Shown piece after piece: positions 14,403 to 30,970 of a stretch of 64,000 nt of DNA; position 1 is the first letter of the stretch, and each line of letters opens with the position of its first letter. This stretch comes from Bacteroidota bacterium. Lineage in GTDB: Bacteria > Bacteroidota > Bacteroidia > Chitinophagales > Chitinophagaceae. The stretch spans positions 558,001 through 622,000 of the forward strand of contig JAFDXK010000002.1 of the NCBI GenBank assembly GCA_018267965.1. Direction: 5' to 3'. A model generated the notes under the pieces. That model worked only from the letters and a program-made list of their open reading frames with translations. It searched no databases and was not told the DNA's origin. The position numbers and the translations under genes are program-made.

Positions 14403-15755
14403 ATGTATAATATTAATGAAACAATAGTGGCATTGGCTACACCACCGGGTGTAGGTGCTATAGGTGTGATACGGTTGAGCGGTGCGAAAGCGATTGCCAT
14501 TATAGATAGTATTTTCAAAGGAAAGAAACTGGTGAGTCAACCATCCCACACTATACATTTCGGTAAGATAATGGATGGCGACAAAGCATTGGATGAAGTA
14601 GTGGTGAGCCTATATAAATCACCAAAGAGTTATACCGGCGAAGATGTAGTTGAGATAAGCGGGCATGGCAGCCAGTATATACTGGAGCAAATCATCAACC
14701 TCTGCATAGCTAATGGGGCGCACATGGCAAAGGCCGGAGAGTTTACACAACGTGCTTTTTTAAATGGTAAGTTGGACCTAGCTCAGGCAGAGGCTGTTGC
14801 AGACCTGATAGCATCGCAATCCGGTGCTGCACAACAAGCGGCCATGCACAACCTTCGTGGCGGTTTTAGCGAAGAGTTGAAAGCTATGCGCGAGCAACTC
14901 ATACAATTCAGTGCACTGATAGAACTGGAACTAGACTTTAGCCAGGAAGATGTGGAGTTTGCAGACCGTACCAAATTCTATGAACTGATAAACCACCTCA
15001 ACACCAGCGCACAAAAACTGGCAGATTCTTTTAAACTGGGTAATGTGATACGCAACGGCGTGAGTGTGGCTATAATAGGCAAGCCCAATGCGGGTAAGAG
15101 CACTTTACTGAATGCTTTGCTAAACGAAGAACGTGCCATTGTAAGTGATATTGCAGGCACTACACGCGATACTATTGAAGAGACACTGAATATAAATGGC
15201 GTACTGTTTAGGTTGATTGATACAGCAGGTATACGTGAGCATACAAGCGATGTGATAGAAAGTATAGGCGTGCAACGCAGTATGGATACTATGAAGCGCG
15301 CAGATGTGGTGTTGTATCTCTACGATGTGAATACAACAACTGCCGGTGAGATAAAAGAGCAGGTTGCTATATTCGAAAAAGAGCATATTAAATACCTGCT
15401 CGTAGCCAATAAGGCTGATATGTGGACGGGCAATGAGGAGTCAAACACGATCTATATTTCTGCCAAAAACAAAGACAATATTCTGCAACTGAAACAAGCA
15501 TTGTATAAGCTGGTGGTAGAAGGAGAAATAAATACAGAGGGCACCATCATCACCAACGCACGTCACTATGCGTCATTGCAGGAAGTATTGAAGTCACTTG
15601 CAGATATTAAATCAGGTCTTGATAACCACATAGCGAGTGACCTGATAGCGCTCGATATCCGCCGCTGCCTCTTTTACCTCGGAGAAATAACAGGAGAAGT
15701 AACCACCGAGGATAAGCTGGATTATATATTTAGCAAGTTTTGTATAGGGAAATAA
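14403..15755 (+). CDS. mnmE: tRNA uridine-5-carboxymethylaminomethyl modification GTPase MnmE
   Basis: With MnmG it modifies U34 of certain tRNAs. It has an N-terminal folate-binding domain (ATPPGVGAIGVIRLSG), a helical domain, and an inserted G domain with G1 GKPNAGKST (residues 226-234), G3 DTAG (near 273) and G4 NKAD (near 336). The C-terminus is FCIGK, with the catalytic cysteine. At 450 residues it is complete. The last 18 bases of the gene, plus nine more, are repeated almost exactly at 28266-28292, which marks this gene end as a probable integration site. Confidence 0.97.
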   Translation: MYNINETIVALATPPGVGAIGVIRLSGAKAIAIIDSIFKGKKLVSQPSHTIHFGKIMDGDKALDEVVVSLYKSPKSYTGEDVVEISGHGSQYILEQIINLCIANGAHMAKAGEFTQRAFLNGKLDLAQAEAVADLIASQSGAAQQAAMHNLRGGFSEELKAMREQLIQFSALIELELDFSQEDVEFADRTKFYELINHLNTSAQKLADSFKLGNVIRNGVSVAIIGKPNAGKSTLLNALLNEERAIVSDIAGTTRDTIEETLNINGVLFRLIDTAGIREHTSDVIESIGVQRSMDTMKRADVVLYLYDVNTTTAGEIKEQVAIFEKEHIKYLLVANKADMWTGNEESNTIYISAKNKDNILQLKQALYKLVVEGEINTEGTIITNARHYASLQEVLKSLADIKSGLDNHIASDLIALDIRRCLFYLGEITGEVTTEDKLDYIFSKFCIGK

Positions 15756-15764
15756 TAGCTTTGC
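15738..15764 (+). repeat. Left direct repeat (attL-like) at the mnmE 3' end
   Basis: A 27-bp sequence starting with the codons for FCIGK-stop of mnmE and continuing TAGCTTTGC. It differs from the copy at 28266-28292 at one base (ATA versus ATC for Ile). The trmE/mnmE 3' end is the known attachment site of SGI1-type integrative elements. TAGCTTTG (15756-15763) also fits the -7 promoter consensus and could drive the response regulator. Confidence 0.75.
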
Positions 15765-15785
15765 TTTTTTAATATTTATTTTAGG

Positions 15786-17126
15786 TTGGCAACAATTCTC
15801 ATAATTGACGACGAAGAAAAGCTAAGAGGTTTACTTAAACGTATCATAACTCTAGAGGGTTATGAGGTTAAGGAAGCCGGCACTATTGCTGCCGGTTGGA
15901 AACAATTAGAAACTAATAGCATTGATATTGTGCTTTGCGATGTAAAGCTGCCTGATGGCAATGGTGTAGACTTTACACAAGAGGTAAAGGCAAAATACCC
16001 ATATTTAGAAATAGTCCTTCTGACAGCGTATGGCAACATACCTGATGGTGTAACAGCTATAAAAAATGGTGCGTTTGATTATTTAGTGAAAGGTGATGAT
16101 AATGATAAAATTATACCCATCCTAAGCCATGTAACAGAGAAGTTAGCATTACAAAGAAGGGTTAAGCATCTTGAAAAACAACTCGATAATCAATATGGGT
16201 TTGATAATATAATAGGTAATAGCAAACCACTAAAAGAAGCAATAGAATTAGCTAAAAAAGTTGCCGTTACAAATACGACAGTTTTATTAACTGGCGAAAC
16301 AGGTACGGGAAAAGAGGTTTTTGCACAAGCCATTCATTATAGCAGCAACAGAGCAAACAACCACTTTGTAGCTTTAAACTGTAGTGCTTTTAGTAAGGAA
16401 TTACTGGAGAGTGAATTATTTGGACACAAAGCAGGAGCATTCACAGGTGCAGTAAAAGACACAAAAGGCCTGATTGAGGAAGCTAAGGGAGGTACACTTT
16501 TTCTTGATGAAATAGGCGAAATGCCCATTGATTTGCAGCCTAAGATTTTACGTTTACTTGAAAACGGTACATATATCCGTGTAGGTGACACGAAAGAACA
16601 AAAAGCTGATATAAGACTTATAGCTGCTACCAATAGAAACCTGAAACAGGAAGTAGAACAAGGTCATTTCAGAGATGATCTATATTACCGCATAGCAGTA
16701 TTTGCGATTGAATTGCCGGCTTTAAGAGACCGATTAGCAGATATACCCGAATTAGCTTCTCATTATTTGAAAGTTTATAGCTCTAAGACAAATAAGACAA
16801 TCAAATCCATCTCTAAAGAAGCCTTAGATATTCTGATGCTAAATGAGTGGAAAGGCAACGTGCGAGAGTTAAAGAACGTTATTGAACGCGCAGTAATATT
16901 AGAAGATTCAGATGCGCTTACCTCCTCAAGTTTGCCTGCTGATATGCAAAAAGATAAATCAAATACTAAACAAGGCCTCTCTGCATTTCATCTTGCCAGT
17001 GTGGAAAAACTGCATATTCAAAAGGTATTGAATTATACAAAAGGTAATAAGTCAGAAGCCGCGAGGCTTATGGATATTGGATTGGCAACTCTTTATCGCA
17101 AAATAGACGAATACGGGTTGAAGTAA
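15786..17126 (+). CDS. Sigma-54-dependent response regulator (NtrC family) of the kdp cluster
   Basis: A transcription activator. It has a receiver domain with acidic patch DDEE and phosphoacceptor Asp52 (LCDVKLPDGNG), an AAA+ domain with Walker A GETGTGKE (170-177) and the sigma-54 contact motif GAFTGA (217-222), and a C-terminal Fis-type helix-turn-helix (NKSEAARLMDIGLATLYRK). The start is a TTG at 15786 that gives MATILIIDDEE; no ATG is available near it. It is followed by its own terminator, and a sigma-54 promoter lies ahead of the kdp genes. In E. coli the kdp regulator is an OmpR-type protein, so this is a different regulator class. The likely partner is the kinase at 26492. Confidence 0.92.
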   Translation: MATILIIDDEEKLRGLLKRIITLEGYEVKEAGTIAAGWKQLETNSIDIVLCDVKLPDGNGVDFTQEVKAKYPYLEIVLLTAYGNIPDGVTAIKNGAFDYLVKGDDNDKIIPILSHVTEKLALQRRVKHLEKQLDNQYGFDNIIGNSKPLKEAIELAKKVAVTNTTVLLTGETGTGKEVFAQAIHYSSNRANNHFVALNCSAFSKELLESELFGHKAGAFTGAVKDTKGLIEEAKGGTLFLDEIGEMPIDLQPKILRLLENGTYIRVGDTKEQKADIRLIAATNRNLKQEVEQGHFRDDLYYRIAVFAIELPALRDRLADIPELASHYLKVYSSKTNKTIKSISKEALDILMLNEWKGNVRELKNVIERAVILEDSDALTSSSLPADMQKDKSNTKQGLSAFHLASVEKLHIQKVLNYTKGNKSEAARLMDIGLATLYRKIDEYGLK

Positions 17127-17144
17127 CCCATCTCATTTTGATAG

Positions 17145-17175
17145 AAACCTTCTCATTTTGAGAAGGTTTTTTATT
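17145..17175 (+). terminator. Intrinsic terminator after the response regulator
   Basis: AAACCTTCTCA (17145-17155) pairs perfectly with TGAGAAGGTTT (17159-17169) around a TTT loop, followed by a T-rich tail (TTATTA). It lies 18 bases after the stop codon and separates the regulator from the kdp genes. Confidence 0.9.
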
Positions 17176-17261
17176 ACATCAAATACAGCTGATTAATTAA
17201 GGTGATACTAAAAGTGTTGCCGATACTGCGTTTCACATAATTCGGTGCTTTGATTATTTGT

Positions 17262-17278
17262 AAGGCATGTTATTTGCC
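17262..17278 (+). promoter_or_regulatory. Sigma-54 promoter for the kdp operon
   Basis: AAGGCATGTTATTTGCC matches the -24/-12 consensus TGGCACGnnnnTTGC: the GG (17264-17265) and GC (17276-17277) are spaced by ten bases, and GGCA and TTGC are exact. Transcription would begin near 17289, about 90 bases before the first small gene. The adjacent regulator carries the GAFTGA motif needed to activate such promoters. Confidence 0.75.
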
Positions 17279-17381
17279 TCCTAATATGCAAAGCCAAAGC
17301 TATGTCAAGCAAATAGTTGATAGCTGCTATAGTATGGTTTCTTGCAATTGTGTTCTTGTCTATAGTGCTACTAAATATAAA

Positions 17382-17474
17382 ATGATAAAAATGATAACAG
17401 GGATATTATTAGTAACAGGGCTTGTATGTTTTGCCCTTCTTTTTAAAACTATTGATTGGTTTGAAAAAATATAA
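17382..17474 (+). CDS. Small single-span membrane protein upstream of kdpF
   Basis: A 30-residue peptide beginning MIKMITGILLVTGLVCFALLF and ending KTIDWFEKI. One hydrophobic span covers residues ~4-22, with the charged end WFEKI. The open frame extends back to an ATG at 17250, but that part is cysteine-rich and unlike coding sequence and would place the start before the predicted transcription start, so the ATG at 17382 (or 17391) is chosen. It lies three bases before kdpF. I believe similar tiny proteins precede kdp genes in other Bacteroidota, but I cannot verify this. It may be a second accessory subunit like KdpF. Confidence 0.6.
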   Translation: MIKMITGILLVTGLVCFALLFKTIDWFEKI

Positions 17475-17477
17475 ACA

Positions 17478-17555
17478 ATGACAGAATTATTTATTGTAGC
17501 CATACTTGTGTTTTTGTATATGTGCTACGTTTTGGTTAAACCGGAAAAATTTTAG
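17478..17555 (+). CDS. kdpF: Potassium-transporting ATPase subunit KdpF
   Basis: A 25-codon gene. The product starts MTELFIVAILVFLYMCYVLV and ends KPEKF. It has one membrane span and the KPEKF ending typical of KdpF, the small lipid-like subunit that stabilises KdpABC. The stop TAG is six bases before the kdpA ATG. The position (directly before kdpA), size and ending all agree with KdpF. Confidence 0.88.
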   Translation: MTELFIVAILVFLYMCYVLVKPEKF

Positions 17556-17561
17556 TATCAG

Positions 17562-19301
17562 ATGAACACCGAATTGTTTGGAGTAATATTTATGTTCCTC
17601 GGCACTTTGCTGCTGGCTATACCTTTAGGTAAATACATTGCTAAAGTATATGCAGGCGATCGTGTGTGGACTGATGTCATCTTTGCACCAATTGAACGTA
17701 TGTTTTTTAGGGTGTCAAGAATAGACATCTCAAAAGAAATGAACTGGAAACAGCATCTTGTTGCGTTGCTTACTATAAACCTTGTTTGGTTCTTATGGGC
17801 TATGTTTTGTCTTATGAATCAGGGATGGTTACCAATGAATCCTGACCATATTACATCGCAATCACCCGATTTGGCTTTTAATACGGCTATTTCTTTTTTG
17901 GTAAACTGTAACCTGCAACACTATAGCGGTGAATCAGGTGCATCATACTTCACACAAGTATATGGCCTGATGTTTCTTCAATTTGTTTCAGCAGGTACCG
18001 GTATGGCTGCAGCAGCTGTTGTTTTTAATGCTTTAAAAGAAAGGGCAACAGATAAGTTGGGTAATTTTTACAATTACTTCTTAAAAAGCTGTACTCGCAT
18101 ATTGTTACCTCTATGTATACTGATAGGAACGGTACAGATATTTGAAGGCACACCAATGACTTTTAAAGGCATGGATACCATTGTAACTATGCAGGGCGAT
18201 ACTCAACATGTAAGTCGTGGCCCGGTTGCTGCATTCGTAGCTATCAAACATTTAGGTACTAATGGAGGTGGCTTCTATGGTGCTAATTCAGCCCACCCTT
18301 TAGAAAATCCTAATTATCTATCAAACATGGTACAAATGATAGCACAGGTTTTGATTCCTTTTGCTATGATTTTTGCTATGGGCTTCTTCTTACGCCGCAA
18401 AAAACTGGCGTGGGTTATATGGAGTGTAATGACTATTGGATTTCTCGCATTGGTAATTCCAACTATTAATGCAGAAATACATGGTAACGTTATGATAGCT
18501 AAAATGGGAATTAGCCAACCATTGGGGAATATGGAAGGGAAAGAGATACGATTTGGCGCAAGGGCATCTGCATACTGGAGTATTGCCACTACGGTAATAT
18601 CTACAGGATCTGTAAATAGTATGCACGATAGTTTTATGCCCCTGTCCGGTATGAATATGTTGCTGGGCATGATGGTTAATTCATTTTATGGTGGTGTAGG
18701 TGTAGGCTTTCTCAACTTCTATGTATATCTGATACTGGCTGTATTTATTGGTGGGCTGATGGTGGGGCGCACGCCCGAGTTTCTTGGCAAAAAAGTAGAA
18801 GCTAAAGAAATGAAAATAGCCATGATAGTGGCATTACTACATCCATTTCTGATACTTGTAGGTACTGCTATTGCAAGTCATTTAGCTGCGCATGATGCTG
18901 CTATGGGTTGGTGGTGGATGGGTGCAGATGGGAAACCAATGCACGCGACAGCATGGTTGAATAATCCGAGGTATCACGGTTTTAGCGAAATGCTTTATGA
19001 ATACACTTCATCTTCTGCCAACAATGGTAGCGGTTTTGAAGGCTTGGGAGATAATAACCCGTTTTGGAATATTAGTACAGGCATTGTGCTTATTCTATCA
19101 CGCTTTATCCCAATAATAGGGCCGGTAGCTATAGCAGGTTTATTAGCTCAAAAGAAACACATACCTGAAAGTGCCGGAACATTAAAACCAGACACAGCAA
19201 CTTTTGGTACGTTGATATTGGCAGTTAAAATAATTATTGCAGCATTAGCATTTTTCCCTGCTTTGGCTTTAGGCCCTATAGCAGAATGGTTAAGCATGTA
19301 A
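17562..19301 (+). CDS. kdpA: Potassium-transporting ATPase potassium-binding subunit KdpA
   Basis: The channel-like subunit that selects potassium in the KdpFABC pump of the inner membrane. It has about ten hydrophobic segments and the repeated selectivity-filter regions of the superfamily (for example FLVNCNLQHYSGES, KHLGTNGGGFYGANSAHP, STGSVNSMHDSFMPLSG, SANNGSGFEGL). Length is 579, normal for the family. It follows kdpF by six bases and precedes kdpB by 15. Confidence 0.97.
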   Translation: MNTELFGVIFMFLGTLLLAIPLGKYIAKVYAGDRVWTDVIFAPIERMFFRVSRIDISKEMNWKQHLVALLTINLVWFLWAMFCLMNQGWLPMNPDHITSQSPDLAFNTAISFLVNCNLQHYSGESGASYFTQVYGLMFLQFVSAGTGMAAAAVVFNALKERATDKLGNFYNYFLKSCTRILLPLCILIGTVQIFEGTPMTFKGMDTIVTMQGDTQHVSRGPVAAFVAIKHLGTNGGGFYGANSAHPLENPNYLSNMVQMIAQVLIPFAMIFAMGFFLRRKKLAWVIWSVMTIGFLALVIPTINAEIHGNVMIAKMGISQPLGNMEGKEIRFGARASAYWSIATTVISTGSVNSMHDSFMPLSGMNMLLGMMVNSFYGGVGVGFLNFYVYLILAVFIGGLMVGRTPEFLGKKVEAKEMKIAMIVALLHPFLILVGTAIASHLAAHDAAMGWWWMGADGKPMHATAWLNNPRYHGFSEMLYEYTSSSANNGSGFEGLGDNNPFWNISTGIVLILSRFIPIIGPVAIAGLLAQKKHIPESAGTLKPDTATFGTLILAVKIIIAALAFFPALALGPIAEWLSM

Positions 19302-19316
19302 TTGAAAAAATAGACA

Positions 19317-21359
19317 ATGAAAAAGAATAATAAAAAGAGTTTGTTTGAATGGTCTTTGGTAAAGGAAGCCATAGGACAATCATTTATAAAGCTAAATCCC
19401 AAAGTACAATTTCGTAATCCTGTAATGTTTACAGTTGAAATTGGTACTGTAATTATGCTGATAGTATGCTTGTGGATATTAGCAGGTGAAAAATCGCAAG
19501 GTTCATTCACCTATAACTTCATCATATTCCTCGTGCTCTTATTCACGCTGCTCTTTGCAAACTTTGCAGAAGCATTGGCAGAGGCGAGAGGCAAGGCGCA
19601 AGCAGCATCTTTGCGTAAAACAAGGGAAGAAACACCGGCTAAGAAAGTAGAGCCGATGGGTGAGATATTTATGAACGAGATTCATATAGTGCCGTCATCT
19701 TCTTTGAAAAAAGGCGACTTCTTTGTTTGTGATGCCGGAGATATAGTACCTATTGACGGTGAAATAGTGGAAGGTATTGCCACAATTGACGAATCTGCCA
19801 TTACTGGTGAATCTGCACCGGTAATACGTGAAGCTGGCGGTGATAAATCATCAGTAACAGGTGGTACGAAGGTGTTGTCTGACCATATAAAGGTTAAAGT
19901 AACTACTGAAGCTGGTGAAAGTTTTCTCGACAAAATGATTGCATTAGTTGAAGGTGCCTCAAGACAAAAAACACCAAACGAAATTGCGCTAACAATTTTG
20001 TTAGCAGGTTTTACATTGGTGTTTGTGATTGTTTGTGTAACACTGCATCCTTTTGCTGCTTATGCTAAAACACCTATCCCGATAGCAGCATATATCTCAT
20101 TATTTGTTTGCCTGATACCTACTACTATCGGTGGGCTATTATCTGCTATTGGTATTTCAGGTATGGACAGGGCGTTACGAGCCAATGTAATTGCTAAATC
20201 AGGTAAAGCCGTTGAAACTGCCGGCGATCTGGATACATTGTTACTTGATAAAACAGGTACTATCACCATTGGCAATAGAAAGGCTACAAATTTTTATCCT
20301 GCAGATGGTATTGATGAAAAGCACTTTAAGCAATGTGTAGTATTAAGCTCTTATGCTGATGAAACACCCGAAGGAAAATCAATAATTGAATTAGTGGGTA
20401 TCAACCCCTTAAGCTACGCGGTCAGCAATCCGAAATTTATAAAGTTTACAGCGGAAACACGCAGTAGTGGCATTGACTATGAAGGTATCCACATAAGAAA
20501 AGGCGCTTATGATGCCATCAGAAATAACGTAGAAAAAGCAGGAAATGGTTTCCCTGTAGATATAAAAGCTAAAGTTGATGAAATATCATCCAATGGCGGT
20601 ACGCCATTAGTAGTGTCTGAAAATAATGTTGTATTAGGCGTAATCGAATTGCAGGACATTATTAAAACAGGGATTCAGGAACGTTTTGAACGCTTGCGCA
20701 AAATGGGTGTGAAAACAGTTATGGTTACGGGCGACAACCCTTTAACAGCGAAGTATATAGCTGAAAAAGCAGGTGTTGATGATTATATAGCAGAAGCCAA
20801 ACCTGAAGATAAAATGTCGTACATACGTAAGGAACAGCAAAATGGCAAATTGGTTGCGATGATGGGTGATGGTACAAATGATGCACCTGCACTGGCGCAG
20901 GCTGATGTTGGTGTTGCTATGAATAGTGGTACTGCTGCTGCAAAAGAGGCTGGCAATATGGTTGACCTTGACAACGACCCTACTAAACTCATTGAAATAG
21001 TAGAAATAGGCAAGCAACTTTTAATGACGCGAGGCACTCTTACTACTTTTTCAATAGCTAATGACGTAGCCAAATATTTTGCTATCGTTCCGGCATTGTT
21101 CATCATATCAATACCTGCATTGCAAGGATTAAACATTATGAATCTGCACAGCCCTCAAAGTGCAATTCTGTCGGCTGTAATATTCAATGCTATTATTATT
21201 CCGTTGCTAATACCATTGGCATTGCGTGGTGTAGCCTACAAACCTATAGGGGCAAGCTCTCTTTTGAGAAGGAATTTATTAGTGTATGGTTTGGGTGGCA
21301 TATTAGTGCCCTTTATAGGCATCAAACTAATTGACCTTGTAGTAACCTTATTCATGTAA
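19317..21359 (+). CDS. kdpB: Potassium-transporting ATPase ATP-binding subunit KdpB
   Basis: A P-type ATPase that powers the Kdp pump. The phosphorylated Asp311 is in [12 protein letters not shown]; the actuator motif is ITGESAPV, and the hinge is [21 protein letters not shown]. The membrane part includes [14 protein letters not shown], with the Pro-containing segment seen in KdpB. At 680 residues it is complete. Co-transcribed with kdpA and kdpC. Confidence 0.98.
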
Positions 21360-21378
21360 ACGCTTTAAACGAATTGTT

Positions 21379-21939
21379 ATGAGAAAAGAATTATTGCCTT
21401 CTATTATACTGACTGTGTTATGTATCCTGTTCTTTTCAGGATTATATCCGCTTGTTATGTGGGGTATAGCACAGGCAGCACCAAATAAAGGAGAAGGGTT
21501 TATTACAAACGTTGGAGACAAAACATACTATAATAACATAGCTCAGAAATTTTCTGATGATAAATATTTCTGGTCGCGTCCTTCAGCAGTTGATTATAAT
21601 GCTGCCGGTTCTGCAGGTAGTAATAAAGGGCCTGCTAACCCTGATTATTTAGCACAGGTACAACAACGTATCGATACCTTTTTAGCGCATAATCCGGGGG
21701 TTAGAAAATCAGATATACCATCTGATATGGTTACAGCAAGCGGTAGTGGTTTAGACCCGCATATAAGCCCGCAAGGTGCTATGATACAAATAAATCGTAT
21801 CGCAAACGCAAGACATTTGCCAATAGAAACAGTTAAGGCATTGGTTGATAAACAAACTGAAAAACCACTGCTGGGATTGTTCGGCCCGAAAAAAATAAAT
21901 GTTTTAAAGCTAAATATTGAATTAGATCATCTTAAATAA
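21379..21939 (+). CDS. kdpC: Potassium-transporting ATPase subunit KdpC
   Basis: A single-span chaperone-like subunit that raises ATP affinity of the Kdp pump. It has an N-terminal membrane anchor (IILTVLCILFFSGLYPLVMWG) and a soluble domain with the family motifs YFWSRPSAVDYNA and SGSGLDPHISPQGA. At 186 residues it is normal. It is followed after five bases by the porin gene, which therefore belongs to the same transcript. Confidence 0.97.
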   Translation: MRKELLPSIILTVLCILFFSGLYPLVMWGIAQAAPNKGEGFITNVGDKTYYNNIAQKFSDDKYFWSRPSAVDYNAAGSAGSNKGPANPDYLAQVQQRIDTFLAHNPGVRKSDIPSDMVTASGSGLDPHISPQGAMIQINRIANARHLPIETVKALVDKQTEKPLLGLFGPKKINVLKLNIELDHLK

Positions 21940-21944
21940 AACGT

Positions 21945-23387
21945 ATGAAAAAACAAATTACAAAGCTCACAATCGCCGCTTTGCTTAGTACTTCTGTATT
22001 AAGTTCAGCTTATGCCCAACAAGGAAGTGAAATAAGGCAAAAAGACCTGACAACCGCTTCGTCTGATGATGACGAAACGAAAGCAAAAGAGCCTAAACCT
22101 GAAATAGTTCCATTTGAAGGGCAGGACCAAACATGGCAAAACGGTAGTGACAGAAGAAGTGAATCAGTATTACAAGGAAAATACTTTACGGGTTCGTTTA
22201 TGTTTGATGGCAATTACAATTATTCATTTAACAACCCAATTGATAATACAGTAGTGGGTTCGACTGCAATGGCACGTCACAATGAAATGGAGGTAATGTT
22301 TCTTGGCATCGGTGGAGATTTTAATTATAAAAACGCCCGTGGTCGCGTGATGTTGCAATTGGGTAACCGTTCTATTGTAATCCCTCGTAATGATTACAGC
22401 CCTTATAGGGGACAGTATCAATTAGCAAATTCACTTCGTTATATGAGTGAGGCTTACGGTGGGTATCATTTTAACATTGGTGCAGTACCTATCAATGTGG
22501 ATGCTGGCTTGTTTATGTCTTATATTGGTTTGAACTCATACTATCAGGTTGAAAACTGGGAATATCAGGCATCATTTACATCAGACAATACACCGTGGTT
22601 CTTCAATGGTATGAGGATACAAATATTTCCTTCTAAAAAGTTGAAAATCGAGCCCTGGATTATTAATGGTTGGCAGAGCTATGGCAAATTCAATAGTATG
22701 CCGGGCTTTGGTGCAAACATTACATGGTGCCCAAGTGAAAATGTGAAACTGTTAACCAATGACTATTATGGTGCTGATGCTGCTATGATACCTGACAGGA
22801 AACGTTTCCACTCTGATAATAGTTTATTAGTAAGGTATTACAAGAACCCTAAGAAGACTGGCATTAACCAAATGGCATTTTCTTTGACTGGCGATTTAGG
22901 TTTTGAAAAAGGTGGTGGTGTTAATGGTTTCAACAACAGCGACCCTGCAAATCCTGCTCAATACTTTTTAAGTGCCATGATTTACAACCGTATTTGGTTT
23001 AATAAGAATCACTTTGCATGGACAATAGGCGGCGGTATTATGACTAACCCGGGACGTTACTTGGTATTATATCCTACAGGTGATGCAAGCCCATTGCCTA
23101 ACCCAACTAACCCTACAACAACAGAAGGTACACATCCTTTCAGTGCAAATCCGGGTGACCAATTCAACGCTTGGGATTGCTCAACAAACTTTGACTGGAT
23201 GCCAAATCAAAGCCTTACTGTGCGCTTAGAATATGTGCATAGAGAAGCTGATGTGCCTTATTTTGCCGGACACGGGGGTGTAACTTCTCCTACAGGATAT
23301 ACAACTACAGCAATACCTACAGGTTGGGCTCCTGATTTAGTAACTTCAGAAGACCGCATCATTTTTGCTGTATTAGTAAGACTATAA
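21945..23387 (+). CDS. Outer membrane porin (beta-barrel, BBP2-like), island copy
   Basis: A predicted outer-membrane beta-barrel with a signal peptide (IAALLSTSVLSSAYAQ), an acidic linker (SSDDDETKAKEPKPE), and then many amphipathic strands that end in IIFAVLVRL. It resembles the putative beta-barrel porin-2 / OmpL-like group often linked to kdp in Bacteroidota (recollection, not checked). It probably lets cations reach the periplasm for Kdp and Kup. It is a close paralogue of the porin at 28375, with long identical blocks such as AEGYHF-like and PWFFNGMRIQIFPSKKLKIE. Confidence 0.85.
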   Translation: MKKQITKLTIAALLSTSVLSSAYAQQGSEIRQKDLTTASSDDDETKAKEPKPEIVPFEGQDQTWQNGSDRRSESVLQGKYFTGSFMFDGNYNYSFNNPIDNTVVGSTAMARHNEMEVMFLGIGGDFNYKNARGRVMLQLGNRSIVIPRNDYSPYRGQYQLANSLRYMSEAYGGYHFNIGAVPINVDAGLFMSYIGLNSYYQVENWEYQASFTSDNTPWFFNGMRIQIFPSKKLKIEPWIINGWQSYGKFNSMPGFGANITWCPSENVKLLTNDYYGADAAMIPDRKRFHSDNSLLVRYYKNPKKTGINQMAFSLTGDLGFEKGGGVNGFNNSDPANPAQYFLSAMIYNRIWFNKNHFAWTIGGGIMTNPGRYLVLYPTGDASPLPNPTNPTTTEGTHPFSANPGDQFNAWDCSTNFDWMPNQSLTVRLEYVHREADVPYFAGHGGVTSPTGYTTTAIPTGWAPDLVTSEDRIIFAVLVRL

Positions 23388-23408
23388 AATAACTTCGTTA
23401 TTTGCAAT

Positions 23409-25373
23409 ATGAATGAAGCAAGTAACATATCGAATAATAATCATGCAGTAACACGTTTCACATGGGGGGGCGTGTTACTTGCTTTAGGAATTGTTTTTGG
23501 AGATTTAGGCACATCCCCTCTTTATACTTTTAAAGCAATCATTGGGGAAAAGGTAATTTCTGAAACATTAGTTTTGGGAGGTGTGTCTGCTGTGTTTTGG
23601 ACTTTGTTTTTTCAAACAACGCTTAAGTATGTTTTTATTACTATGCGTGCGGATAACAAAGGTGAAGGTGGTATTTTTTCGTTGTATGCCTTAATAAGAA
23701 GACACGGCAAATGGGTGCTTTGGCCTGCTATAATAGGTGGCAGCTTTATGATAGCTGATAGCCTGATAACGCCACCTATTTCTGTTACATCTGCAATGGA
23801 AGGTTTAAAGGTAATCAACCCTGACATTGCTATTTTACCTATTACTATTGGAATTATTGTTGCCTTATTCTTGTTTCAGCAAACAGGGACAGATAAAATT
23901 GGCAAATTCTTTGGTCCTGCTATGGTTGTTTGGTTTGGTATGATTGCCATTCTTGGTTTTGCAAATCTCATACAAGACACATCAGTTTTACGTGCGATAA
24001 ACCCGATGTATGCGGTTAGGCTTGTTGCCGAATATCCGGGAGGGATGTGGGTATTAGGGGGTGTGTTCCTATGTACTACAGGAGCAGAAGCGTTGTATGC
24101 TGACATGGGGCATGTTGGCAGGCGCAATATTCAGATAGCATGGATATTCATTAAAGTAGCATTGTTGTTATGCTATTTTGGAGAGGCGGCATTGCTGTTA
24201 AAACATACTAATCAACATCTAACAGCTATTGATGCGTTTTATGGCTTAGTTCCGCAATGGTTTTTAATTCCCAGCATCATTATAGCTACAGCGGCTACTA
24301 TCATAGCAAGTCAGGCATTGATTAGCGGCACATTTACCTTGTTCAACGAAGCTATAAGGCTCAATGTATGGCCTAAACTTCGTATTGAGTTTCCTACTGA
24401 TATGCGTGGACAGGTTTATGTCCCTGCGGTCAATTGGTTTATGATGTTAGGCTGCATTGGTATGGTATTGCATTTCCGGGAATCATCGAATATGGAAGCA
24501 GCATTTGGTTTATCAGTTACACTAACAATGTTGATGACAACAATATTGCTAAGCTATTATCTCTATACACTAAGGGTAAATAAACTAATCGTTCTTTTTG
24601 TACTGCTGTTATTTTTATGGATAGAGGTTACTTTTCTTGTCGCAAACCTAAGTAAGTTTTCGCATGGTGGCTGGATAACATTAGTAATCGGATTATTGCT
24701 AATAAGCACCATGTACATTTGGTATGTTGGAAAACGCTTAAAGAGTAGGTACAAAAATCTTGTTGACATTAAAAAATATCTGCCTGTTCTCAAGGAGTTA
24801 AGTAATGACAACAGCGAATCAAAATATGCTACTCACCTTGTTTATTTAACTATATCAAATAAGCCTGAGAAAATTGAAGAACGCATTATAGACTCAATAC
24901 TATATCAGAAGCCTAAAAGAGCTGATTTGTATTGGCTGGTAAATATTGAGGTGACAGATGAGCCATACCACGCATCTTATACAACTGAAATAATACAACC
25001 CGAAGATGTAGTTTATGTAAAATTCAGGCTAGGGTTTCGGGTAGTGCCACGTATCAACATATTGTTTAAAAAAGTTGTAGCAGAATTGGTTAGAAACAGA
25101 GAAATAAAAGTAGATAACAAATACTACAACCCTGATATACCTTATGTATCAGGCGATTTCCGTTTTGTAATAATGAAAAGCTTCTTGTCGGTTGAGAATA
25201 ATCTTTCACTATGGGATAATATAATTATGAGACTGCATTTTATTCTTGATAAGTTGAGTTTGCCTGATGATAAAGCATTTGGTTTAGATTATAATAACGT
25301 GGTAGTAGAAAAAGTGCCATTGATATTGGGCAAAACCGAGAATATTACATTAATAAGAGAAAAACATGAGTGA
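23409..25373 (+). CDS. kup: KUP-family potassium uptake transporter
   Basis: A proton-coupled potassium importer of the inner membrane. The N-terminal GVLLALGIVFGDLGTSPLYT is the family signature, as is the ADNKGEGGIFSLYAL loop. About twelve membrane segments (to residue ~440) are followed by a C-terminal cytoplasmic domain of some 200 residues. Length is 654. It sits inside the kdp transcript, 21 bases after the porin, and overlaps the KdpD-like gene by eight bases. Having low-affinity Kup and high-affinity Kdp together makes the island a full potassium module. Confidence 0.95.
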   Translation: MNEASNISNNNHAVTRFTWGGVLLALGIVFGDLGTSPLYTFKAIIGEKVISETLVLGGVSAVFWTLFFQTTLKYVFITMRADNKGEGGIFSLYALIRRHGKWVLWPAIIGGSFMIADSLITPPISVTSAMEGLKVINPDIAILPITIGIIVALFLFQQTGTDKIGKFFGPAMVVWFGMIAILGFANLIQDTSVLRAINPMYAVRLVAEYPGGMWVLGGVFLCTTGAEALYADMGHVGRRNIQIAWIFIKVALLLCYFGEAALLLKHTNQHLTAIDAFYGLVPQWFLIPSIIIATAATIIASQALISGTFTLFNEAIRLNVWPKLRIEFPTDMRGQVYVPAVNWFMMLGCIGMVLHFRESSNMEAAFGLSVTLTMLMTTILLSYYLYTLRVNKLIVLFVLLLFLWIEVTFLVANLSKFSHGGWITLVIGLLLISTMYIWYVGKRLKSRYKNLVDIKKYLPVLKELSNDNSESKYATHLVYLTISNKPEKIEERIIDSILYQKPKRADLYWLVNIEVTDEPYHASYTTEIIQPEDVVYVKFRLGFRVVPRINILFKKVVAELVRNREIKVDNKYYNPDIPYVSGDFRFVIMKSFLSVENNLSLWDNIIMRLHFILDKLSLPDDKAFGLDYNNVVVEKVPLILGKTENITLIREKHE

Positions 25374-26490
25374 GGCGGATAATAATGCGGAGCATTTCCT
25401 TGACCTAATCAGGAAATCAAGGAAGGGGAAATTCAAGATTTATATTGGCATGGCTGCTGGTGTAGGCAAGTCATACCGTATGTTGCAGGAAGCACATACA
25501 CTATTGCAAAACGGCGTAGATGTAAAGGTTGGATATATTGAGCCGCATAACAGGAAAGAAACCCTTGAATTAGTTGAAGGGTTACCCATAATCCCCCGCA
25601 GGCAGGTTTATTATAAGGGCAAAGAGTTGGAAGAAATGGATTTGCAAGCCATCATTAACCTGCACCCTGAAGTAGTAATAGTTGATGAGTTAGCACACAC
25701 CAATATTCCCGGAAGTAAAAATGAAAAACGTTGGCAAGATGTATTAGATATACTTGATGCAGGTATTAATGTAATCAGTGCGTTAAATATCCAGCATTTG
25801 GAAAGCCTGAATGACCTCGTGAAAGGTATTACAGGAGTTGAAGTATTAGAGCGTGTACCCGATAGCATTTTAAAAATAGCCGATGAAATAGTAAATATTG
25901 ATCTTACGGCAGAAGACCTTATTTCAAGATTAAAAACAGGGAAAATATATGCGCCCGAAAAAGTAGAAAAGGCACTAAAAAACTTTTTTAAGCCTGAAAA
26001 CATTCTTCAACTTAGAGAATTAGCACTAAAAGAAGTTGCCGGACAAATAGAGCGTAAAGTAGAAACGGAAATACCTAAAGGAGTAGCGTATCGGCATGAG
26101 AAATTTTTGGCTTGTATTAGCACAAATGAAAAAACATCTAAACTCGTTATCAGAAAAACAGCACGATTGGCAAGCTATTATAATGCCCAATGGTGGGTTT
26201 TATTTGTTGAAACCCCGAAAGAAAGCCCCGACAAAATAGCCTTAGACAAACAAAGGCATTTGATTAATAATTTTAAATTGGCAACCGAGTTAGGTGCTGA
26301 GGTTTTAAAAACACAGAGCAATAAAGTAGCAAAAGGTATATTAGAAATTGTGCAGGAAAAAGGTGTAACCACAGTTTGTATTGGGAAACCTCACTTAAAC
26401 CTAACGCAGGTAATTTTAGCTACCAGTGTATTTAACGAATTATTGAATGTGCTATCACAGAATAACATAGACTTGATTATTTTATCATAA
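25366..26490 (+). CDS. KdpD-type sensor domain protein without kinase (KdpD-N plus Usp)
   Basis: Corresponds to the cytoplasmic N-terminal half of KdpD only. The KdpD domain (residues ~18-225) has Walker A GMAAGVGKS (28-36), the EPHNRKET segment and the Walker B-like VVIVDELAHTN. A Usp-like domain follows (~250-374). There are no membrane spans and no histidine kinase, while E. coli KdpD has about 890 residues with all three parts. The next gene, two bases on, encodes a kinase. It may sense potassium or a nucleotide and act on the kinase by protein contact (inference). Confidence 0.9.
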   Translation: MSEADNNAEHFLDLIRKSRKGKFKIYIGMAAGVGKSYRMLQEAHTLLQNGVDVKVGYIEPHNRKETLELVEGLPIIPRRQVYYKGKELEEMDLQAIINLHPEVVIVDELAHTNIPGSKNEKRWQDVLDILDAGINVISALNIQHLESLNDLVKGITGVEVLERVPDSILKIADEIVNIDLTAEDLISRLKTGKIYAPEKVEKALKNFFKPENILQLRELALKEVAGQIERKVETEIPKGVAYRHEKFLACISTNEKTSKLVIRKTARLASYYNAQWWVLFVETPKESPDKIALDKQRHLINNFKLATELGAEVLKTQSNKVAKGILEIVQEKGVTTVCIGKPHLNLTQVILATSVFNELLNVLSQNNIDLIILS

Positions 26491-26491
26491 T

Positions 26492-28186
26492 ATGCCACAA
26501 ACCATTAAATCAAAAATTGCCTACGGCATTGGAGCATTATTTATCTTATTGCTTACTATTAGTATTGTAGCATTCGTTTTTATTAATCTCCTGTCCAACC
26601 GTACAGAAAATCTTTTGACAGCTAATTATAAAACTATACAGTATTGCAATCAAATGATGCATGCAATTAATGGTGTTTCTATTGATAGTAATGCAAAAGC
26701 TGCATTTGAGAAGAATTTACAATTACAGGAAAATAATATTACGGAGAATGGTGAAAAAGAAGCCACACAAAAACTTCGTCTTTACTTTGAACTTATTAAT
26801 AAAAATGCTGCTGATACCACAGTTATTGATTCCATTAATAAGCAATTATATGATATTGCTTTGCTGAACCAACATGCTTTAGAGCGTAAAAACCAAAAAG
26901 CCCTCGATACAGCAAATTCTGCTAAACTTTGGATTTCCTTATTGACGGGTATTCTTATACTAATCAGTTTTACACTTGTAGTTAATTTTCCGGGCTACAT
27001 TGCTAATCCTATTCGTTTGCTTACAGAAGGCATAAAAGAAATCGCACAGAAAAATTATAGTAAACGCATTTACATAGCCAACAATGATGAGTTTGGGGAA
27101 ATGGCAACCGCATTTAACCAAATGGCCGAAAAGCTATATGAGTATGAAAACAGCAATATCAATCAACTTATTTTTGAAAAGCAAAGGGTTGAAACTATTA
27201 TCAATCAAATGACGGATGCTGTTATTGGATTGGATGCTAAAAGCAAAGTTCTTTTTATTAACAATACAGCTCAACAACTGCTAAATCTGAAAGCCAACGA
27301 AATAAAAGGGAAATATGCACCTGATATAGCATTGAGAAATGACCTGTTTAGGTTCATTCTCCAAAAAAGCCCTAATCAGGAACCATTGAAAATTGTATAT
27401 GAAGGCAAGGAGAATTATTTTTCTATTGATAGCAAGCCCGTTTATAGCGAAGACAAAACAATAGGTGAGGTCTTCATCCTGAAAAATATTACCCAATTTA
27501 AGGAGCTCGATATTTCTAAAACCAATTTATTAGCTACAATATCCCACGAGCTTAAAACACCTATTTCTTCAATAAAAATGAGTGCAAAACTTATTAACGA
27601 TGAAAGAACAGGTAAGTTGAATAATGAACAAAAGGAATTAGTTGGTAATATTAACGAAGATGCAGAGAGATTACTAAAACTAACTGGGGAGTTATTGAAT
27701 ATGACCCAAATTGAAACAGGTAATATTCAATTGAAACTGCAGAAAGTAAGTCCTAAAGAAATCCTTGATAATGCTTTAAAAGCTGTGCAAACACAGGGGC
27801 AACAAAAACAAATACAATTAATAGTAGGCCCATTGGAAAATATTCCCGATGTGCAGGCAGATGCAGATAAGACTTCATGGGTATTAATAAATATTTTAAG
27901 CAATGCAATTAAATATGGCAGTCCTTCAAGTACTGTAAATATTGACGTAAAACAATTGGACGATATCGTTCAATTCTCTATAAAGGATAATGGCCCCGGT
28001 ATAGATGATAAATACACGGGAAAGATATTTGAGCGTTATTTTAAAGTTCCCGGAAGTGAGCAAACAGGTTCAGGATTAGGATTAGCCATTTCAAAAGAAT
28101 TTATTGAAGCGCAAGGAGGTACAATATCATTTACTAATGTTCCCGAAGGCGGCGCGGTGTTTAGTTTTAGTTTACCTGTTGTGTAA
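26492..28186 (+). CDS. Membrane histidine kinase with HAMP and PAS domains (partner of KdpD-like protein)
   Basis: A sensor kinase with two membrane spans (~residues 10-33 and ~147-167) around a periplasmic helical region of about 110 residues, then HAMP (NPIRLLTEGIKEIAQ), PAS (~230-340), HisKA with His352 in ISHELKTPISS, and HATPase_c (N box NAIKYG, G1 DNGPGID, G2 GSGLGLAIS). It resembles NtrB/PhoR-like kinases rather than the KdpD C-half. As the last gene of the kdp run, it probably phosphorylates the sigma-54 regulator at 15786. Confidence 0.9.
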   Translation: MPQTIKSKIAYGIGALFILLLTISIVAFVFINLLSNRTENLLTANYKTIQYCNQMMHAINGVSIDSNAKAAFEKNLQLQENNITENGEKEATQKLRLYFELINKNAADTTVIDSINKQLYDIALLNQHALERKNQKALDTANSAKLWISLLTGILILISFTLVVNFPGYIANPIRLLTEGIKEIAQKNYSKRIYIANNDEFGEMATAFNQMAEKLYEYENSNINQLIFEKQRVETIINQMTDAVIGLDAKSKVLFINNTAQQLLNLKANEIKGKYAPDIALRNDLFRFILQKSPNQEPLKIVYEGKENYFSIDSKPVYSEDKTIGEVFILKNITQFKELDISKTNLLATISHELKTPISSIKMSAKLINDERTGKLNNEQKELVGNINEDAERLLKLTGELLNMTQIETGNIQLKLQKVSPKEILDNALKAVQTQGQQKQIQLIVGPLENIPDVQADADKTSWVLINILSNAIKYGSPSSTVNIDVKQLDDIVQFSIKDNGPGIDDKYTGKIFERYFKVPGSEQTGSGLGLAISKEFIEAQGGTISFTNVPEGGAVFSFSLPVV

Positions 28187-28374
28187 TATTGGTTGCTTCT
28201 AACGTTTTTATTCCTTATTTGTACCTCAATCTTTCAAAAGCCCTTGCCGGTATTGAAAAGATACTTTTTGTATCGGGAAATAATAGCTTTGCATTATTCA
28301 TTATAGTTGACATCACCTGCATGCAGCAGGCCGAAAAAGTATAAGAATGAATTAGAATATTTCAACTACAAGGT
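28187..28374. other. Intergenic region holding the island right border
   Basis: No gene is seen. It contains the right 27-bp repeat, then a CCTGC-ATGCA-GCAGG hairpin (near 28317-28331) ahead of the second porin. The TAGCTTTG box inside the repeat could serve as the -7 element of that porin. No integrase or insertion-sequence remnant is visible. Confidence 0.5.
28266..28292 (+). repeat. Right direct repeat (attR-like)
   Basis: The second copy of the mnmE-end sequence, 26 of 27 bases identical to 15738-15764. It again reads FCIGK-stop in frame, though no mnmE frame precedes it (a stop codon lies four codons upstream). The single change is synonymous (ATA to ATC). Confidence 0.75.
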
Positions 28375-29820
28375 ATGAAAAGACAAATTACTCATTTCAC
28401 AATTGCTGCTTTACTAATTGCTTCTTTTTTTAACACTGCTTATGCACAATCACAGAAGGAAATAAGACAAAAAGATCTTATCGCGGTTTCATCTGATGAT
28501 GAAACTACAGTTGCGAAATCTCCAAAACCTGAAATTATCCCTTTTGAAGGGCAAGACCAGACCTGGCAAAATGGTAGCGATAGAAGAACCGAATCCGTAT
28601 TACAATCAAAATACTTCACAGGTTCCTTCTTGTTCGACGGCAACTACAACTACTCTTTTAACAATCCGATTGACAATACCGTTGTCGGCTCAACTGCTAT
28701 GGCACGCCACAACGAGATGGAAATTATGTTCCTTGGTATTGGAGGAGAATTTAATTATAACAGAGTGAGAGGTAAGGTGATGTTGCAATTTGGTAATCGT
28801 TCAATCGTAATTCCACGTAACGATTTCAGCGTATATCGCGGGCAATATCATTTAGATAATTCACTCCGTTACCTGAGCGAAGCATACGGGGGATATCATT
28901 TCAATATAGGTGCAGTGCCTATTAATGTTGATGCTGGGTTGTTTATGTCTTACCTTGGTCTTAACTCATATTACCAGGCTGAGAACTGGGAGTATCAGGC
29001 TTCATTTACCTCAGACAATACCCCATGGTTTTTTAACGGTATGAGGATACAGATATTTCCATCTAAAAAATTAAAAATAGAGCCATGGATCATTAACGGA
29101 TGGCAGAGTTACGGAAAATTCAATAGCATGCCCGGCTTTGGGGCAAACATTACATGGTGCCCTAATGAGAAAGTAAAACTGTTAACTAATGATTACTATG
29201 GTGCAGATGCTGCTATGATACCCGGCAGAAAACGTTTCCATACCGACAACAGTGTATTGGTAAGATATTACAACAACCCTAAGAGTAAGGGTATAAATAA
29301 GATGGCATTCTCATTGACCGGAGATTTAGGTTTTGAAAAAGGCAGTGGTGTAAATGGATTTAATAATAACGATTCAGCAGCAGGACCTGCTCAGTACTTC
29401 CTGAGTGCAATGGCATACAACCGTATCTGGTTTGGCAAAAATAAATTTGCCTGGACAGTTGGTGGTGGTTTGATGACTAACCCCGGGCGTTACTTAGTGT
29501 TATACCCAACAGGTGATGCGAGCCCATTACCAAATCCTAACGACCCAACTAAAACAGAGGGGACGCATCCGTTCAGCACAAATCCGGGCGACCAGTTTAA
29601 AGGTTGGGACTGCTCTACTAATCTTGATTGGATGCCTAACCAGAGCCTGACAGTGAGACTGGAGTATGTACATAGAGAAGCCAATGTTCCCTATTTTGCC
29701 GGACATGGAGGTGTTACCTCTCCTACGGGCTATACTACAACATCAATCCCTGCCGGATGGTCGCCTGATTTAGTAACACACGAAGATCGCATCATTTTCG
29801 CAATCTTAGTAAGGTTGTAA
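28375..29820 (+). CDS. Outer membrane porin (beta-barrel, BBP2-like), second copy outside the island
   Basis: Paralogue of the porin at 21945, nearly the same length (481 versus 480). It shares long identical stretches (for example WEYQASFTSDNTPWFFNG) and the same C-terminal strand IIFAILVRL. The signal peptide (FTIAALLIASFFNTAYA) and the acidic linker are the least conserved parts. Many codons differ at the third position, so the duplication or transfer is not very recent. It is a single gene with its own leader, 83 bases after the right repeat. If the island was inserted, this gene would have been the original downstream neighbour of mnmE (inference). Confidence 0.85.
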   Translation: MKRQITHFTIAALLIASFFNTAYAQSQKEIRQKDLIAVSSDDETTVAKSPKPEIIPFEGQDQTWQNGSDRRTESVLQSKYFTGSFLFDGNYNYSFNNPIDNTVVGSTAMARHNEMEIMFLGIGGEFNYNRVRGKVMLQFGNRSIVIPRNDFSVYRGQYHLDNSLRYLSEAYGGYHFNIGAVPINVDAGLFMSYLGLNSYYQAENWEYQASFTSDNTPWFFNGMRIQIFPSKKLKIEPWIINGWQSYGKFNSMPGFGANITWCPNEKVKLLTNDYYGADAAMIPGRKRFHTDNSVLVRYYNNPKSKGINKMAFSLTGDLGFEKGSGVNGFNNNDSAAGPAQYFLSAMAYNRIWFGKNKFAWTVGGGLMTNPGRYLVLYPTGDASPLPNPNDPTKTEGTHPFSTNPGDQFKGWDCSTNLDWMPNQSLTVRLEYVHREANVPYFAGHGGVTSPTGYTTTSIPAGWSPDLVTHEDRIIFAILVRL

Positions 29821-30190: not shown

Positions 30191-30970
30191 ATGTTATCTA
30201 AGTTGTTTGGAAGGAAAAAGGAAGAAAAAGTACTTAATTATGGCCCTCGTAATCCCGATGGTTATGGCGACTGGTCTTTTGTAGGTACAGATATGCACTC
30301 ACACTTAGTGCCTGGTATTGATGATGGAGCGCAGACAGTTGAGGATAGTATCTCACTTATTCAACAACTGCAGGGGATGGGTTTTAAAAGCCTGATTACT
30401 ACACCGCACATCAAAAGCGACCATTATCCTAATACACACGCTACTATCCAATCAGGGTTACAGGAACTTCGGGCAGCTTTGCATCAAAGAGGTATCAATA
30501 TGCCTATAAAAGCCGCTGCTGAATACTATATCGACGATTATTTCATGCAATTGCTCGATGCTGAGCCATTGCTTACAATTACAGAGAACAAGGTGCTGGT
30601 AGAAATATCTTTTTTATTCGAGCCGGTACGTTTTTATGATACTTTGTTTAAGATACAAACTGCAGGATACAAACCTATAATTGCTCACCCCGAACGATAT
30701 GCATTCTATCATAACAATATCAATGCTTATAAGGAGCTGAAAGACAGGGGATGTCACTTACAATTAAATACCATTTCGCTTTCGGGTTATTACGGCCGTG
30801 CAGTAAAGGAAGTAGCTGAGCGGATATTGTCTATGGGTTTGTACGATTATTGTGGTACAGATATGCACCACGTAAAGCATGCAGATAGTATGCAAAAGCT
30901 GCTTCAATCAGGTGTAATGCCTGTGTTACAACAGTATCCTTTCCTTAATTCAAGATTACAACTGGTATAA
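30191..30970 (+). CDS. CpsB/YwqE-type tyrosine-protein phosphatase (PHP domain)
   Basis: A manganese-dependent phosphatase that removes phosphate from the tyrosine kinase controlling polysaccharide chain assembly. The PHP motifs are DMHSHLVPGIDDGA (residues ~36-49), TTPHIKSDHYPN, IAHPERY and GTDMHH. Length (259) is normal. It heads the locus, while its presumed target kinase is at 43155. In other Bacteroidota the two are often adjacent; here 12 kb of sugar genes lie between them. Confidence 0.92.
   Translation: MLSKLFGRKKEEKVLNYGPRNPDGYGDWSFVGTDMHSHLVPGIDDGAQTVEDSISLIQQLQGMGFKSLITTPHIKSDHYPNTHATIQSGLQELRAALHQRGINMPIKAAAEYYIDDYFMQLLDAEPLLTITENKVLVEISFLFEPVRFYDTLFKIQTAGYKPIIAHPERYAFYHNNINAYKELKDRGCHLQLNTISLSGYYGRAVKEVAERILSMGLYDYCGTDMHHVKHADSMQKLLQSGVMPVLQQYPFLNSRLQLV

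What the first reader, a model, noticed from the sequence alone, without database searches (positions are those of the whole stretch)
15738..28292. Potassium island bounded by direct repeats at the 3' end of mnmE
Two 27-bp sequences, 26/27 identical, lie at 15738-15764 and 28266-28292. The left copy is the FCIGK-stop end of mnmE plus nine bases; the right copy again reads FCIGK-stop but has no mnmE frame before it. Between them is one functional module (regulator, kdpFABC, porin, kup, split KdpD). The mnmE/trmE 3' end is the established attachment site of SGI1-family elements, and their 18-bp repeats correspond to the same codons. I infer site-specific acquisition of a kdp cargo in a Bacteroidota genome. 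No integrase is present, so the element would be a relict or be moved in trans.
Basis: partly seen in the sequence, partly recalled or inferred. Interest (0 to 1): 0.85.

Follow-up and report, generated by a model that had tools for sequence, protein, structure and literature searches.

The report
Relict potassium-transport island at mnmE
A potassium-uptake gene cluster in this Bacteroidota genome sits inside the leftover borders of a mobile element that inserts at the end of the tRNA-modification gene mnmE, and related bacteria carry fuller versions of such elements, one of them with its recombinase and the same kind of potassium genes.

Summary
The repeat is real and not chance. Its first 18 bp (FCIGK-stop) are an attachment core; the last 9 bp are more likely the promoter (TAnnTTTG) of the kdp regulator. 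In this genus the mnmE 3' end is an integration site: 4 of 13 relatives have a tyrosine recombinase as first or second ORF after mnmE, and 7 of 14 genomes with mnmE have a second core copy (same contig in the window's genome and two others). In the wider family 25 of the 30 best recombinase loci lie at mnmE. Empty and occupied sites are seen in relatives. The 70 bp before the right copy match right ends of other such elements (3 of 9 clearly), so the right copy is an element end. G223 holds a 37.6-kb element with the same borders, a recombinase and a kdp operon. The window's island has no recombinase: a relict (CIME-like). Corrections: the predicted empty site with porin 2 was not found; porin 2 looks like a remnant of a second kdp unit; G253 and G316 have kdp beside mnmE without a demonstrated right repeat, so an older mnmE-kdp linkage is not excluded.

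The parts
14403..15755 (+). mnmE (tRNA modification GTPase); its last 18 bp are the attachment site
   Evidence: NCBIfam TIGR00450 above cut-off; full-length matches in 14 of 15 genus genomes incl. own
15738..15755 (+). attL core, TTTTGTATAGGGAAATAA (F-C-I-G-K-stop)
15756..15764 (+). TAGCTTTGC, proposed -7 promoter element of the kdp regulator gene
   Evidence: AATAATAGCTTTGC before the regulator in G253, AATAGCTTTGC in G126
15786..17126 (+). NtrC-type (sigma54) response regulator, TTG start
   Evidence: PF00072, PF00158, PF02954
17478..17555 (+). kdpF-like 25-aa ORF
   Evidence: translation; name from position, not tested against a family
17562..19301 (+). kdpA
   Evidence: TIGR00680 above cut-off
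19317..21359 (+). kdpB
   Evidence: TIGR01497 above cut-off
21379..21939 (+). kdpC
   Evidence: NF010606 and NF001454 above cut-off
21945..23387 (+). porin 1 (BBP2)
   Evidence: PF07642
23409..25373 (+). Kup-like potassium transporter
   Evidence: PF02705 E 1.9e-155; best NCBIfam match kup but below its cut-off
25366..26490 (+). KdpD sensor domain as a separate protein
   Evidence: PF02702
26492..28186 (+). histidine kinase (HAMP, PAS, HisKA, HATPase), second half of split KdpD
28196..28265 (+). right end (arm) of an mnmE-type element; arm motif CTTATTTGTACCTC at 28214-28227
   Evidence: aligned to right ends of G003 (first copy), G010, G013; 0 of 6000 null stretches as good; motif once in the window
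28266..28283 (+). attR core, TTTTGTATCGGGAAATAA
28284..28292 (+). second TAGCTTTGC promoter element
28346..28374 (+). 29 bp resembling the kdpC 3' end before porin 1 (21 of 29)
   Evidence: among 1275 pairs of upstream stretches, this pair included, next best 16
28375..29820 (+). porin 2 (BBP2), proposed remnant of a second kdp unit
30191..30970 (+). CpsB/CapC-like gene, start of native flank shared with G002, G006, G008

Best explanation
The stretch 15738-28283 is a relict of an integrative element that uses the last 18 bp of mnmE as attachment site. A tyrosine recombinase of the kind found beside mnmE in relatives (shown there) once recombined a circular element with this site (inferred). 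The element's right end and core remain at 28196-28283 (shown by alignment). Its left end and recombinase are gone, and the kdp regulator promoter now follows the mnmE core directly (shown), perhaps joined through the shared AAATAA (inferred). The cargo is a complete potassium module: two-component control, KdpFABC pump, porin, Kup-like transporter. To the right, promoter plus porin 2 are what is left of a second kdp unit, either an older resident operon or a tandem element (inferred). With two att sites and no recombinase it works like a cis-mobilizable element: it could leave only if a related recombinase came in (inferred).
For: Repeat exact but for one base, no third copy. Second core copies at 0 mismatches in 7 of 14 genus genomes with mnmE; the other 7 have no ORF of this recombinase family in the 10-12 kb read after mnmE. 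Recombinase family: 5 matches in 15 genus genomes, 4 beside mnmE, the fifth 0.85 kb after another core copy; 25 of 30 loci held from 45 family matches lie at mnmE. Window right flank from 30191 on colinear with the right flanks in G002, G006, G008, with G012 as empty site. G010 assembly holds both an empty and an occupied junction. Right-end arm match. G223 element with recombinase and kdp between exact cores. In G002 and G014, the only other genus members with KdpB, kdp is elsewhere.
Against: No recombinase or transfer gene in the island. Right-end arm matches only 3 of 9 other right ends clearly (G002 p=0.007; G003 second copy, G006, G008, G223, G253 p 0.08-0.26); an ungapped comparison was weaker. 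G253 and G316, close to this genus by MnmE identity, also have kdp beside mnmE with no sure att copy to its right. Base composition does not stand out. KdpB identity to G014 and G002 (92, 90%) is like that of MnmE (88, 89%), so no sign of recent import. The two cores differ by one base. The right copies of G002, G003, G008 and G010 lie on other contigs than mnmE, so those joins are inferred.
Confidence: 0.72

Rival explanations
1. Older linkage: kdp was a resident neighbour of mnmE in the ancestor of this genus and its nearest relatives. Elements came and went at the mnmE core; the arm and core to the right of kdp stem from a rearrangement, and kdp itself was never cargo here.
For: kdp beside mnmE in G253 (regulator 1.8 kb past an attR) and G316 (regulator about 0.7 kb after the mnmE core); same order kdp-porin-kup-KdpD in G253 and the window; promoter stretch shared with G253 and G126.
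Against: kdp within 60 kb of mnmE in 4 of 92 genomes examined; the 13 other genus members with mnmE lack it there; none of the window's right-flank ORFs matched in the 60 kb of G253; an element right end to the right of kdp has no simple origin on this reading.
Confidence: 0.2
2. Tandem duplication of the kdp operon together with its promoter and the end of mnmE, without any recombinase; the repeat marks the duplication.
For: Porin 1 and porin 2 are 86% identical in protein and 29 bp before porin 2 resemble the kdpC end.
Against: Similarity before the right copy is to element ends of other genomes; repeat similarity starts at the 18-bp core used elsewhere.
Confidence: 0.05
3. The repeat is a shared promoter (TAnnTTTG) plus chance.
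For: TAGCTTTG fits the Bacteroidota -7 consensus, seen in a passage of PMC7366714.
Against: 18 of the 27 bp lie outside that motif and equal the core found at element ends in relatives.
Confidence: 0.02

Closest known systems
SGI1 family (trmE/thdF-specific integrative mobilizable elements of Gammaproteobacteria)
   Same: Target is the last 18 bp of trmE/mnmE, with 18-bp imperfect direct repeats (PMC3285670, passages). E. coli mnmE ends TTCTGTATTGGTAAGTAA, the same codons. Tandem integration is reported there too.
   Different: Other phylum; recombinases of the relatives have Arm-DNA-bind_5 and SAM_5 domains and were not compared with SGI1 Int; the island has potassium genes only, no SGI1 backbone and no resistance integron.
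CIME (cis-mobilizable element)
   Same: Keeps attL and attR, lacks integration and transfer genes (definition seen in passages of PMC5704250).
   Different: Mobilization of this one is untested and no resident recombinase of this family is present.
mnmE-specific recombinase elements of this family (G002, G003, G006, G013, G223, G253)
   Same: Core, position at mnmE, right-end arm (clear match with G003 first copy, G010, G013); G223 also carries kdp.
   Different: They hold the recombinase near mnmE; the window's island does not.

Membership tests
CIME | attL and attR retained | tested here: met
CIME | no integration or transfer genes | tested here: met
   the large ORFs of the island are the kdp module, porin and Kup-like transporter
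CIME | can be mobilized by a related element | not testable with these tools
   needs an experiment
SGI1 family | insertion in the last 18 bp of trmE/mnmE with 18-bp repeats | tested here: met
SGI1 family | conserved SGI1 backbone genes | tested here: not met
   island ORFs are potassium genes; SGI1 genes themselves were not used as queries
SGI1 family | recombinase related to SGI1 Int | not tested
   SGI1 Int was not obtained; three E. coli loci looked at had no recombinase in their tables
mnmE-specific recombinase elements of this family | 18-bp mnmE core at both ends | tested here: met
mnmE-specific recombinase elements of this family | right-end arm before attR | tested here: met
   clear against 3 of 9 right ends
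mnmE-specific recombinase elements of this family | recombinase gene next to mnmE | tested here: not met

The most novel reading that the evidence does not exclude
A family of non-autonomous kdp cassettes exists whose attachment core is fused directly to the kdp regulator promoter, so that one circle carries core, promoter, sensor, pump, porin and Kup and is moved in trans by mnmE-specific recombinases; the window holds one complete and one worn-down copy in tandem, and G316 (core copy with one mismatch just before the regulator) and G253 (core-like stretch, 15 of 18 by eye, before the regulator) are further members.
Probability: 0.2. Interest if true: 0.7.

Novelty: new variant of a known kind. 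Interest (0 to 1): 0.5.

Why it matters
It shows that the same 18 bp of mnmE used by SGI1 in Gammaproteobacteria serve as attachment site for another set of recombinases in many genera of one Bacteroidota family, and that a regulated potassium pump can travel as cargo. It gives a ready place to look for variable genes (metal efflux, restriction, Piwi, kdp) in these genomes.

Tried and rejected
Chance repeat: rejected. Promoter-only repeat: rejected. tRNA as target: no tRNA in the window. Third exact 18-bp core in this genome at C5:1265052: inside a reverse ORF, no element seen; taken as chance. A third att copy between porin 2 and the CpsB-like gene: best stretch there has 9 mismatches of 23. 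Remnant of the regulator's 5' end between right core and porin 2: not significant (p=0.07). Comparison with SGI1 Int was not achieved. Papers: no library paper with mnmE + Bacteroidetes + integrase + genomic island; one review with trmE + Bacteroidetes + integrative + attachment site; 18 papers with 4 of 5 terms, of which the 10 listed showed nothing on Bacteroidota mnmE elements in title or start of abstract; kdpFABC + genomic island + integrase gave 7, listing only. Listings only also. Opened, as passages only: PMC8409611, PMC3285670, PMC5704250, PMC7366714.
Full report
Observation. The two 27-bp copies are in place and differ at one base; 100 shuffles gave none, and the rest of the 3.74-Mb genome has no third copy of the 23-bp part tested. 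The window is G000:C6:558001-622000.

mnmE as integration site in the genus. 14 of 15 genus genomes, own included, have a full mnmE (G001 has none). The DNA after the mnmE stop was read in the 13 others; it is mostly unlike between genomes (G010 and G011 are alike, G002 and G006 partly). The flank held is only 223 bp in G010 and 2 kb in G008, 10-12 kb in the rest. In 4 of 13 (G002, G003, G006, G013) the first or second ORF of 80 aa or more is a tyrosine recombinase of one family (Phage_integrase and Phage_int_SAM_5 in 4 of 4, Arm-DNA-bind_5 in 3 of 4). G008 has what looks like its N-terminal piece, by eye, beside runs of N. A search of 15 genomes with that family at E<=1e-60 gave 5 matches: those 4 and a second one in G013, 0.85 kb after an inverted core copy; none in the window's genome.

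Core copies. With the degenerate 18-mer at 0 mismatches a second copy is present in G000, G002, G003, G006, G008, G010 and G013 and absent in G004, G005, G007, G009, G011, G012 and G014. At up to 1 mismatch the pattern also gives scattered matches, and the reversed control gives 0-5 per strand and genome. In G013 and G006 the direct copy is on the mnmE contig, 57.6 and 14.1 kb downstream; in G002, G003, G008 and G010 it is on another contig, so the join is inferred from orientation and flank. The five bases before the right cores are TTACT in six copies (G002, G003 two, G008, G010, G013 inverted), ATACT in the window, and TTACA, GCACT, AAACT, CTATT in G013, G006, G253, G223.

Empty and occupied sites. 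The right flanks in G002, G006 and G008 are colinear with each other and, from the CpsB-like gene at 30191 on, with the window. In G012 mnmE is followed directly by the gene that comes first in the shared right flank of these three (94-95% in translated matches), and CpsB lies 13.6 kb from mnmE. The window lacks that gene and its neighbour and has porin 2 there. G011 is an empty site for the G010 junction, and the G010 assembly contains both an empty and an occupied junction, 231 of 238 bases alike, which points to mixed strains. The predicted empty site with porin 2 was not found: porin relatives (E<=1e-20) occur in 9 other genomes of 15, none beside mnmE.

The right copy is an element end. 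The 70 bp before it align to right ends of G010, G003 (first copy) and G013 with scores 61, 53 and 42, none of 6000 random window stretches being as good; G002 p=0.007; G003 second copy, G006, G008, G223, G253 p 0.08-0.26. The same test for the DNA before the left copy gave p 0.11-0.99. The arm motif occurs once in the window (28214).

Family scale. In 294 family genomes the recombinase (E<=1e-90) occurs in 40, with 45 matches. Of the 30 loci held, 25 have the end of mnmE and the core directly upstream; of the 5 others one starts at a contig edge. From coordinates, six of the 45 not in that count lie 0.8-3.4 kb after mnmE (G032; G121, G137, G239, G251, G301; G251 is one of the 5), so at least 31 of 45.

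kdp as cargo. G223: exact cores at 45933 and 83558, recombinase at 46515, regulator-kdpABC-porin-KdpD at 69882-79900, with RND efflux, CusB/HlyD-like, ResIII, DNA methylase and Piwi proteins. G253: a 13.4-kb recombinase element at mnmE, then, 1.8 kb past its attR, the order regulator-kdpABC-porin-kup-KdpD as in the window (with a small extra ORF before the porin); to the right of kdp only a 2-mismatch core-like stretch inside a reverse ORF. G316: mnmE core, 0.65 kb, a core copy with one mismatch, then regulator-kdpA-kdpB to the contig end. Over 92 kdp-bearing genomes in which both genes were located (15, 77 of the 78 given), kdp is within 60 kb of mnmE in 4: the window, G223, G253, G316; in the others it is on another contig or 190 kb or more away, by reading the tables. 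Different contigs do not wholly exclude nearness. 46 of the 136 kdp-bearing genomes, those with more than 120 contigs, were not examined. The operon itself is ordinary: in 80 named loci kdpABC-KdpD recurs, with the regulator aligned from its start in 60, and porin and kup variable in presence and place; none has mnmE or the recombinase in the flanks held.

The extra 9 bp and porin 2. TAGCTTTGC fits the -7 consensus TAnnTTTG (PMC7366714, passage). G253 has AATAATAGCTTTGC before its regulator and G126, whose kdp is on another contig than mnmE, has AATAGCTTTGC; other loci have other TAnnTTTG stretches or none (44 of 65 have one). A search for core plus TAnnTTTG in 394 genomes (up to 1 mismatch) gave 16 matches in 15 genomes against 5 for the reversed control; among them both window copies and the G253 regulator promoter; the others were not followed up. 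So the right copy reads element end, core, kdp promoter, although porin 2 follows. The 29 bp before porin 2 match the kdpC end before porin 1 in 21 positions; among 1275 pairs of upstream stretches, this one included, the next best has 16. The two porins are 78% identical in DNA, a little closer than porins of different species here (72-75%). I infer that porin 2 is the remnant of a second kdp unit: a resident operon or an older tandem element. A weak likeness to the regulator's start was not significant.

Comparison. SGI1 is bounded by 18-bp imperfect repeats, one equal to the last 18 bp of thdF/trmE (PMC3285670, passages), the same codons as here (E. coli end). It works like that; it is not filed as an SGI1 member because its genes are others and Int was not compared. 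It fits the CIME definition (PMC5704250, passages) except for mobilization, which is untested.

Noticed in passing
G006 mnmE element (L047, L066), G253 element (L204), G223 element (L187, L188): mnmE elements carry what look like defence and metal genes: in G223 ResIII, N6_N4 methylase, Piwi, RND efflux and CusB/HlyD by Pfam; in G006 and G253 SIR2-like and ATPase-like ORFs judged by eye only.
   Followed up: partly
G013:C1:1673535-1675480 (L064): An inverted third core copy inside the 57.6-kb G013 element with a second, more distant recombinase 0.85 kb after it: a nested or second element.
   Followed up: no
window 15786-17126 and kdp loci L107-L186: The kdp regulator is a sigma54-type NtrC protein and KdpD is split in two; a relative of this regulator was aligned from its start in 60 of 80 named kdp loci.
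   Followed up: partly
G253 oriented 18045-18840 and 36679-37459 (L205): Repeats of about 500 bp, 87% alike, flank the kdp operon in G253; nature unknown.
   Followed up: no
L227-L229 (E. coli): In 769 of 5374 E. coli genomes with a match no single place covers 80% of a query across the mnmE 3' end; in the three looked at, one gene annotated as ShET2/EspL2 family effector lies between mnmE and tnaC.
   Followed up: no
G000:C5:1265052-1265069: A third exact 18-bp core inside a reverse ORF near a contig end, without element features seen.
   Followed up: partly
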